A DNA stretch of 36,441 nucleotides from Candidatus Equadaptatus faecalis (lineage in GTDB: Bacteria > Synergistota > Synergistia > Synergistales > Synergistaceae): positions 1 through 36,441 of the forward strand of contig JAGHTZ010000001.1 of the NCBI GenBank assembly GCA_018065065.1. Direction: 5' to 3'. Below the pieces are notes generated by a model. That model had not been told where the DNA came from, searched no databases, and saw only the letters and a list, made by a program, of their open reading frames with translations. Below, one piece after another: positions 9,033-36,441 of this stretch (the first letter of the stretch is position 1; every line of letters begins with the position of its first letter). The position numbers and the translations under genes are program-made.

Positions 9033-9118
9033 TGGTGCCGGGAGGGGGGATCGAACCCCCACGGGGTTGCCCCCGGTGGATTTTGAGTCCACTGCGTCTG
9101 CCGTTCCGCCACCCCGGC
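9033..9118 (-). tRNA. tRNA-Leu, anticodon CAA
   Basis: An 86-base class II tRNA on the minus strand. It has the acceptor stem GCCGGGG/TCCCGGC (one G-T pair), the A-box TGGCGGAACGGCAGACGC, anticodon stem TGGA/TCCA with loop CTCAAAA (anticodon CAA, reading UUG), a long variable arm GGGGGCAACCCC and the T arm GGGGGTTCGATCCCCC. The 3' CCA is encoded. A near-consensus promoter lies just upstream. Confidence 0.97.
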
Positions 9119-34842: not shown

Positions 34843-35853
34843 GTGTTCACAGTCTTTATCGGAGAGACAGAGCTTGCAAAAATACCCGGGCTTTCGGCTG
34901 CCGGTGCCGACGTCAACGCGCTGCGCTACACAGCACCGTCGGACGCCGACGTGCTTCACTTCGGAAAACCGCGCTGCGTCAGCACAATACCCGTAGATCC
35001 GCAGGGGCACCCGTCGCCGACAATAATAACGAAAGCGGCAATTGACGAAGCAAAACTGCCGTATCTCGTCGTCTGCGCGGGAAACTCCGTGAACCCCGCC
35101 TGTCCGTTTGAAACGGTCGCGTCGAAACCCGGAAAAGACCCGCGCTTCAGAAAAGCCCTGGAAAACGCGGAAGAAATAATAAAACGCTCGGAAGCTCTGG
35201 CAAAAAAACTCGCGCCGCAGCTCAAAAGAATTGTCATAGGAGAATCGGTTCCAGGGGGAACAACGACGGCGCTGCTTCTGCTTCGCGCGCTCGGCTATGA
35301 CCATACAGTATCTTCCGCCGGTCCCGTCAATCCCCTGCAGCTCAAAGAAGAGATTTGGCAGGCTGTCAGCAAAAGACTGAACATAACAATCGGAGGGCTC
35401 AAAGGCAAAGGTTATAAAGCCGCCGAAGAAGTCGGAGACCCTATGCAGATTGCGGTATCCGCATTTGTCCGCGCATTGCCGGAAAGAATTGACGTGACTC
35501 TGGCGGGAGGCACGCAAATGCTTGCGGTTGCCGCCCTTTTGAGAGACTTGGGCGAAACGCGTCCTCTGCTCGTCGCGACGACAAAATACGTCTACAAAGA
35601 CCCGACGAGCTGCATGGAAGAATACGCAAAAGAAATAGGCTGCGGGCTCTGGTGGGCACCGCTTGACTTCAGCAAATCGCCGCGCAGAGGCTTTGCCGAA
35701 TACGAGCTCGGCTACATAAAAGAAGGGGTCGGAATGGGCGGCGCAGTCATGTACGCAATGCAGCAGGGCGTTCCGATAGAACGCATACAGCAGAAAGCCG
35801 AAGAACTGTACGACACGCTCACGGAAAACATGGAAGCGAATTTCAAAAAATAA
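34843..35853 (+). CDS. cobT: Archaeal-type CobT, nicotinate-nucleotide phosphoribosyltransferase family
   Basis: Member of the archaeal/cyanobacterial CobT branch (UPF0284/TIGR00303), thought to activate the lower base of cobalamin by making alpha-ribazole phosphate from nicotinate mononucleotide. The 336 residues include VVCAGNSVNPACPF, the phosphate-binding IGESVPGGTTTALLLLRALG, VGDPMQIAVSAF and LAGGTQMLAVAALL, which are its conserved blocks. It is unlike the enterobacterial enzyme in its first third. The start is GTG 34843, preceded by AAAGGATGA. ATGs just upstream are out of frame. No other cobalamin gene is in the window. The terminator is 63 bases after the stop. Confidence 0.88.
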   Translation: MFTVFIGETELAKIPGLSAAGADVNALRYTAPSDADVLHFGKPRCVSTIPVDPQGHPSPTIITKAAIDEAKLPYLVVCAGNSVNPACPFETVASKPGKDPRFRKALENAEEIIKRSEALAKKLAPQLKRIVIGESVPGGTTTALLLLRALGYDHTVSSAGPVNPLQLKEEIWQAVSKRLNITIGGLKGKGYKAAEEVGDPMQIAVSAFVRALPERIDVTLAGGTQMLAVAALLRDLGETRPLLVATTKYVYKDPTSCMEEYAKEIGCGLWWAPLDFSKSPRRGFAEYELGYIKEGVGMGGAVMYAMQQGVPIERIQQKAEELYDTLTENMEANFKK

Positions 35854-35915: not shown

Positions 35916-35952
35916 AACGGGCTGAATGATAAGTTCAGCCCGTTTTTTTTTT
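35916..35952 (+). terminator. Strong terminator downstream of cobT
   Basis: A perfect 11-bp stem (35916-35926 and 35934-35944, loop TGATAAG) is followed by a run of T to 35952. Confidence 0.93.
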
Positions 35953-35982
35953 GAATACTTTTGCTTACAGCCGCCCAAAGAC

Positions 35983-36050
35983 AGCCGACAGCAGAATTTT
36001 GGTACAATAAACATAGCCCTTTCGGGCACTGATAGCCGACAGCTGACAGC
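35983..36050. repeat. Short direct repeats AGCCGACAGC
   Basis: AGCCGACAGC occurs at 35983-35992 and 36034-36043, and a one-base variant, AGCTGACAGC, directly overlaps the end of the second copy (36041-36050). The repeats flank a TGGTACAAT extended -10-like box (36000-36008) and the first hairpin of the non-coding region. Confidence 0.6.
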
Positions 36051-36395
36051 GGCGCTTTCGCGCCACTCCGGATTACTTCTTACTGGGAGCACCGTTCATT
36101 TTCCTCCGAAGCCGCAGGGCTCTTGCTTTCCCTGCCCACACCTTGGTCACAGAGGCCTCGCGTATAAGAGCTTAAGCCCGAACTCCGCCGGAGAACGTTA
36201 CCGAAGTGCTTAAACCCTGCAGCCGTAAAGGCAGCGGGCTTACCACCGAAGGTGCGCGCATCACGTAATGCGTAAAAGTGGCAGAACCCGGAAGCTTTAG
36301 CAGGAAACGAAAGGAATTGCAGGCTCTGCTAAGCCGTCCCAACGTTTCAAAACCACCGAGCCGGAACAGGATTAAAAACAACAATTCTGTTCCCC
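36013..36395 (+). ncRNA. Candidate structured non-coding RNA or repeat element, class unknown
   Basis: The last ~490 bases have no credible protein gene. They are dense in hairpins: GCCC-TTTC-GGGC (36016-36027), GGCGC-TTTC-GCGCC (36051-36064), GCAGGG/CCCTGC (36114-36135), CCTGCAGCC/GGCAGCGGG (36216-36238), CACC-GAA-GGTG (36244-36254), CGCAT/ATGCG (36257-36272), GCTTTAGCAG/CTGCTAAGC with one bulge (36294-36334) and an 11-bp GGAACAGGATT/AATTCTGTTCC (36363-36393). An extended -10 box ends at 36008. I compared it by eye with tmRNA, RNase P RNA, SRP RNA, 6S, T-box and cobalamin elements and found no match. Strand is set from the promoter-like box only. Confidence 0.35.
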
Positions 36396-36441
36396 GTCAC
36401 TCTCTGCACTGTAATGTTCACAGAATAAGAAATTTGTAACA

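What the first reader, a model, noticed from the sequence alone, without database searches (positions are those of the whole stretch)
35953..36441. Unexplained hairpin-rich non-coding region after cobT
About 490 bases follow a strong terminator and contain at least eight good hairpins, two with the same TTTC loop. They also contain an extended -10 box and direct repeats, but no plausible protein. The small open frames on both strands have no ribosome site and unnatural composition. It may be a large structured RNA or a dispersed repeat element, and it continues to the end of the window.
Basis: partly seen in the sequence, partly recalled or inferred. Interest (0 to 1): 0.6.

Follow-up and report, generated by a model that had tools for sequence, protein, structure and literature searches.

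The report
Dispersed pseudoknotted RNA with protein partner

Summary
In detail: 35953-36441 is non-coding, hairpin-rich and belongs to a dispersed repeat. It stops at 36441 only because the contig ends there; this repeat breaks the assembly at many contig ends.

Its core (36065-36363) is a structured RNA encoded on the MINUS strand. In 31 copies, 92.7% of cells in a 43-pair model with an H-type pseudoknot pair correctly (34-50% when slid), 185 cells show double changes, and wobbles are G-U on the minus strand (104) rather than on the plus strand (12).

The genome has at least about 25 copies; its one sequenced congener has 7-8. None was found in 38 other relatives searched sensitively, 181 other genomes of the order (lighter search), Rfam, phages or plasmids.

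At all five loci where a ~124-147 aa basic protein of no known family has its upstream DNA assembled, this RNA lies directly upstream on the same strand. Two divergent relatives have their own sigma-70-like promoter.

Best reading: a new, genus-restricted small-RNA gene family with a cognate small, probably RNA-binding protein, amplified as solo copies. The layout resembles a type III toxin-antitoxin locus, but without tandem repeats or toxin homology. Transcription and function are untested.

The parts
34843..35853 (+). cobT-type gene (nicotinate mononucleotide-dependent phosphoribosyltransferase), neighbour that is convergent with the RNA
   Evidence: NCBIfam TIGR00303 250.1 bits, cut-off 240
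35916..35952 (+). intrinsic terminator of cobT; a terminator sits at this place in most copies and is often bidirectional (not clearly so in this copy)
   Evidence: sequence; comparison of copies
35953..36015 (.). conserved left module of the repeat (GAATACTTTTGC...TTTTGGTACAATAAACATAGC)
   Evidence: 83-90% matches at C33, C38, C32, C55, C81 and in the congener
36016..36064 (.). variable spacer (two TTTC hairpins and degenerate GACAGC repeats here; TAAGC or AACGCAG repeats in other copies)
36065..36363 (-). structured RNA core
   Evidence: profile and covariance-model matches; R2 197.9 bits, E 1.6e-61 on the minus strand
36066..36111 (-). helix P1 (36066-36072 with 36105-36111)
   Evidence: 136 Watson-Crick, 20 G-U on minus, 2 A-C, 3 other cells in 23 copies
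36114..36135 (-). hairpin P3 GCAGGG..CCCTGC
   Evidence: 133 Watson-Crick, 1 G-U, 2 other cells
36171..36217 (-). helix P4 enclosing hairpin P5 (approximate limits)
   Evidence: 8 of 11 pairs have changes on both sides
36257..36272 (-). most conserved hairpin P8, CGCAUUACGUGAUGCG on the RNA
   Evidence: 100% paired in 31 sequences, U-A to U-G change in 8
36297..36348 (-). H-type pseudoknot: S1 (36297-36304 with 36325-36332) crossing S2 (about 36304-36309 with 36343-36348)
   Evidence: S1 99.4% and S2 92.7% paired, compensatory changes in both
36363..36393 (-). hairpin near the 5' end of the RNA
   Evidence: inverted repeat I5; replaced by GACGAUUUUUCGUC in another subtype
36404..36441 (-). repeat module upstream of the RNA with a promoter-like -10 (TACAGT here; TATAGT in most copies of this module); one of about five alternative modules
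   Evidence: comparison of copies; contig end at 36441

Best explanation
Window 36065-36363 (minus strand) is one gene of a multi-copy family of about 300-nt structured non-coding RNAs. Shown by sequence: the strand, a conserved architecture (outer helix, H-type pseudoknot, P8, P4/P5, P1-P3), at least about 25 dispersed intergenic copies, restriction to one Synergistaceae genus among the genomes searched, and, in 5 of 5 testable cases, the gene of a small basic protein directly 3' of an RNA of this family. Inferred: each RNA is transcribed from its own promoter, the protein binds the RNA (a two-part RNA-protein system), and solo copies such as this one supply more RNA in trans. Solo copies were probably spread and reshuffled by recombination between repeats, because copies at the same locus in the two species can be less alike than copies at different loci.
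For: 47 DNA matches in the genome; 30 covariance-model matches there and 7 in the congener. Structure counted on the RNA strand: 43 pairs, 92.7% of cells paired against 34-50% when slid and 78.0% shuffled; 24 pairs and 185 cells changed on both sides; score 0.322 against 0.135. Wobbles in those helices: 104 G-U on minus against 12 on plus, and in P1/P2 26 against 2. The minus-strand model R2 scores a distant member higher (27.8 bits) than the plus-strand model R1 (19.4). Protein partner: C27, C28, C58, C47 and G001:C153 all have the RNA directly upstream on the same strand; in G001:C19 the contig starts just before a terminator that also ends the divergent RNA at C51. Protein and RNA have the same 2-genome distribution. 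Divergent members have TTGACT-16-TATAAT and TTGACA-16-TAAAAT upstream; G001:C153 keeps the pseudoknot arms with different letters (S2 10/10, S1 5/5, outer helix 8/9, P4 6/6; C51: S2 7/7, S1 5/5). Copies at one shared locus 74% identical (C61/C28) against 94-97% between different loci of the two species.
Against: No transcript data. In the common subtype the -35 region is not convincing and this copy's 3' terminator lacks a clear U-run on the minus strand. The protein has no recognised domain, only a low-confidence model (pLDDT 63) and no fold match, so RNA binding is inferred only from its basic N-terminus and the linkage. Both genomes are fragmented assemblies, so some copies may be chimeric. 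Copies are related by descent, so counts of changed cells are not counts of events.
Confidence: 0.6

Rival explanations
1. A selfish, SINE- or MITE-like repeat: the RNA fold serves only its own spread (or once did), and most copies, this one included, are inert.
For: Many copies, modular boundaries, different upstream cassettes with inverted repeats, degenerate short repeats beside the core, an ISL3 transposase next to one copy; the core is missing at one orthologous site (L072 against L065).
Against: The structure is kept by compensatory changes in solo copies as well; a protein is linked in 5 of 5 cases; four loci carry a copy in both species and two more are consistent with it; no target-site duplication was seen and TnpB is absent.
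Confidence: 0.25
2. A type III toxin-antitoxin-like or abortive-infection module (a special case of the best explanation): the small protein is a toxin, the RNA its antitoxin, and solo copies are spare antitoxins.
For: RNA, terminator, ORF on one strand, with an own promoter, the layout described for type III systems (PMC5086642); pseudoknotted RNA; the AbiF-linked RNA acts in cis and in trans (PMC12373285).
Against: No tandem repeats in the RNA; no match of the protein to Pfam, NCBIfam, PHROGs or PADLOC; RNA copies far outnumber protein genes.
Confidence: 0.2
3. A cis-acting 5' leader or riboswitch on the + strand regulating the next gene.
For: The + direction agrees with the gene next to the core's right side in 21 of 23 cases (binomial p 6.6e-5).
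Against: Wobble asymmetry and fold energies put the RNA on the other strand; those genes share no function (lepA, pheS, feoAB, eutA, adhesin, MscS, transposase). The bias rather means that the RNA and that neighbour are divergently transcribed.
Confidence: 0.04
4. A chance hairpin cluster or an assembly artefact.
For: The repeat sits at many contig ends.
Against: At least 12 copies lie uninterrupted inside contigs, copies occur in two separate assemblies, and there is covariation.
Confidence: 0.01

Closest known systems
Type III toxin-antitoxin loci (ToxIN, CptIN, TenpIN) and AbiF with its ncRNA
   Same: Pseudoknotted RNA encoded upstream of a small protein gene on the same strand, a terminator in between, own promoter.
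   Different: One non-repetitive RNA of about 300 nt instead of tandem repeats of some 34-36 nt; protein unrelated to known toxins in the searched libraries; dozens of solo RNA copies; toxicity untested.
Intergenic repeats of the Bacillus cereus group (bcr1-bcr18)
   Same: Lineage-restricted, dispersed, intergenic; some bcr families have conserved RNA structure and about half of the copies are transcribed (PMC3446304).
   Different: Unrelated sequence; here a small protein is linked to some copies.
Rfam families
   Same: Structured bacterial RNA of riboswitch- or ribozyme-like complexity.
   Different: No family matched the window copy or eight other loci at gathering threshold, nor the divergent members at E up to 1 apart from a nearby tRNA and chance hits.
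Transposon-encoded guide RNAs (omega RNAs of TnpB and IscB)
   Same: Multi-copy pseudoknotted RNA in a repeat.
   Different: No TnpB in the genome; flanking sequences fall into a few shared modules, not unique guides.

Membership tests
Type III toxin-antitoxin | RNA gene upstream of the protein gene on the same strand | tested here: met
   5 of 5 protein genes with assembled upstream DNA
Type III toxin-antitoxin | Rho-independent terminator between RNA and protein gene | tested here: inconclusive
   Clear at G001:C153 and G001:C19; not shown for C27, C28, C58, C47
Type III toxin-antitoxin | Antitoxin made of short tandem repeats | tested here: not met
   Single non-repetitive core in all copies
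Type III toxin-antitoxin | Toxin of the ToxN, CptN, TenpN or Abi_2 families | tested here: not met
   No Pfam, NCBIfam, PHROGs or PADLOC match reaching a cut-off
Type III toxin-antitoxin | Protein toxic alone, neutralised by the RNA | not testable with these tools
   needs expression experiments
Dispersed intergenic repeat (bcr-like) | Many intergenic copies limited to one lineage | tested here: met
Dispersed intergenic repeat (bcr-like) | Signs of transposition (target duplications, filled and empty sites) | tested here: inconclusive
   One site with and without the core, no target duplication seen
Any Rfam family | Score above the family's gathering threshold | tested here: not met
TnpB or IscB omega RNA | Encoded in a genome with TnpB or IscB | tested here: inconclusive
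   PF07282 absent from the genome, 6 of 14 control genomes positive; IscB not searched

The most novel reading that the evidence does not exclude
A new two-part RNA-protein system confined to one Synergistaceae genus, in which a handful of small basic proteins serve dozens of dispersed, pseudoknotted RNA genes; RNA and protein have diverged together into at least three subtypes.
Probability: 0.4. Interest if true: 0.8.

Novelty: new variant of a known kind. Interest (0 to 1): 0.62.

Why it matters
A riboswitch- or ribozyme-sized RNA with strong covariation, absent from Rfam, in at least about 25 copies in a 1.6 Mb genome and linked to an unknown protein family is a concrete, testable new RNA-protein pair. 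It also explains why these assemblies break where they do, and shows how wobble asymmetry can correct the strand of an RNA guessed from raw sequence.

Tried and rejected
Plus-strand RNA: fold z 0.03 and imperfect cells mostly A-C; the one helix favouring plus, a CGUU/ARCG pairing, was dropped. Protein-coding reading of the minus strand (an open frame of about 80 codons in this copy): indels between copies are not in threes and the frames vary. Cis-regulation of the next gene: no common function. TnpB guide RNA: no TnpB. Hits in Clostridia (L138) and Cedecea (L142) from the whole-collection pattern scan: about one chance hit was expected by my own estimate; L138 lies in a coding frame and L142 matches only a 16-base core. 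Phages, plasmids and viral contigs: nothing for the RNA or the protein. PDB profile hits to pentatricopeptide repeat proteins cover 15 residues and are taken as chance. Fold search with a low-confidence model: nothing. A candidate hairpin P7 was not conserved.

Full report
What is there. Window 35953-36441 follows the cobT-type gene (34843-35853, TIGR00303) and its terminator. It has no plausible protein and no Rfam match. A search of the window's own genome (1.6 Mb, 100 contigs) gave 47 matches, so it is a dispersed repeat. The window is contig C1 itself and ends inside the repeat. Its last 101 bases equal the ends of C17 and C87, as expected where an assembler stops at a repeat; by synteny with the congener (C87 pairs with C2) the window probably continues into C17.

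Extent of the family. Iterative profile searches of the fetched loci gave 39 distinct pieces of the core in the two genomes. In the window's genome about 12 copies are not cut by a contig end, 13 more are cut after one half and about 11 show only the other half, so at least about 25 copies exist. The covariance model R2 finds 30 matches in the window's genome and 7 in the only other genome of the genus, a Synergistaceae metagenome assembly; two of the weakest listed matches are the divergent members described below. None was found in 38 other relatives searched sensitively or in the other 181 genomes of the order with stricter filters. Phages, plasmids and viral contigs were negative.

Strand and structure. 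The copies differ enough to test pairing. A first count on the plus strand already showed many compensatory changes, but the imperfect cells were mostly A-C, which is G-U on the minus strand: 105 against 24. Counted on the minus strand, a 43-pair model (outer helix, S2 and S1 forming an H-type pseudoknot, P8, P6, P4, P5) pairs in 92.7% of cells, against 34-50% for slid versions and 78.0% for shuffles, with 185 cells changed on both sides. G-U outnumbers A-C 104 to 12 (counted with a candidate hairpin P7), and P1-P3 agree. The single-sequence fold also favours minus (z -2.30, against 0.03). The RNA therefore runs from about 36400 down to 36065, towards cobT.

Context. In 21 of 23 cases the gene next to the RNA's 5' side is transcribed divergently from the RNA (two-sided p 6.6e-5). 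These genes have nothing in common (lepA, pheS, feoAB, eutA, MscS, adhesins), which argues against regulation of one pathway. Upstream of the core are about five alternative modules with a promoter-like -10; downstream are a variable spacer of degenerate short repeats, a conserved left module and a terminator.

Protein partner. Four loci of the window's genome (C27, C28, C58, C47) and one of the congener (C153) carry, directly 3' of the RNA and on its strand, a gene for a basic protein of about 124-147 residues. At the remaining protein genes the contig ends before the RNA would be reached; at G001:C19 it ends just before a terminator that also follows the divergent RNA at C51. The protein has no convincing match in Pfam, PHROGs, NCBIfam or PADLOC and occurs in the same two genomes only, out of 188 in the phylum. 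Its predicted structure is of low confidence and matches nothing.

Divergent members. The RNA next to the C153 protein and two RNAs at C51 and C3 score only 25-28 bits but keep the architecture with different letters: in C153, S2 10/10, S1 5/5, outer helix 8/9, P4 6/6; in C51, S2 7/7 and S1 5/5, with a weaker outer helix. C153 and C51 have strong sigma-70-like promoters on the RNA strand, and C153 folds far better than chance (z -4.77). The RNAs seem to have diverged together with their proteins.

How it spread. Four loci have a copy in both species (feoAB C119/C18, C61/C28, C96/C2-C87, C107/C20) and two more (lepA, C149/C54) are consistent with it; one has lost or gained the core. Copies at one orthologous pair are 74% identical, while copies at different loci of the two species are 94-97% identical, as high as or higher than orthologous genes (86-96%). 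Recombination between copies is the simplest explanation; misassembly inside repeats cannot be excluded for single cases.

Conclusion. The sequence evidence for a structured minus-strand RNA family is strong. The RNA-protein pairing is well supported by linkage and shared distribution. Transcription, binding and function are inferred. The layout is like a type III toxin-antitoxin locus, but the defining tandem repeats and toxin homology are absent, so it is not filed there.

Noticed in passing
L202:2176-2558 (G000:C51) and L203:1-240 (G000:C3): A divergent RNA of the same family in two near-identical copies, with promoter TTGACA-16-TAAAAT at C51, unknown to Rfam; both lie at contig ends.
   Followed up: partly
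L050:8785-10173, L168:160-960, L163:4400-4800, L164:4300-4520: An ISL3 transposase beside one copy, and inverted-repeat (MITE-like) cassettes whose ends form the RNA's upstream module; they could act as bidirectional promoters for the RNA and its divergent neighbour.
   Followed up: partly
window 36016-36064 and the same place in other copies: Degenerate short repeats (GACAGC, TAAGC, AACGCAG, AATTACGATAAG) fill the spacers and other intergenic regions of this genome.
   Followed up: no
L051:150-300, L068:7990-8160, L185:60-240, L053 near 5890: The module TGTTCACTGAATAAGAAATTTGTAACA recurs as direct repeats about 120 bp apart, and inverted at L053, like an operator or a transposon end.
   Followed up: no
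window 9036-9118: A tRNA gene on the minus strand, the only gathering-level Rfam match in the window.
   Followed up: no
L115:939-1106: A lysine riboswitch in the congener, on the same contig as a copy of the repeat.
   Followed up: no
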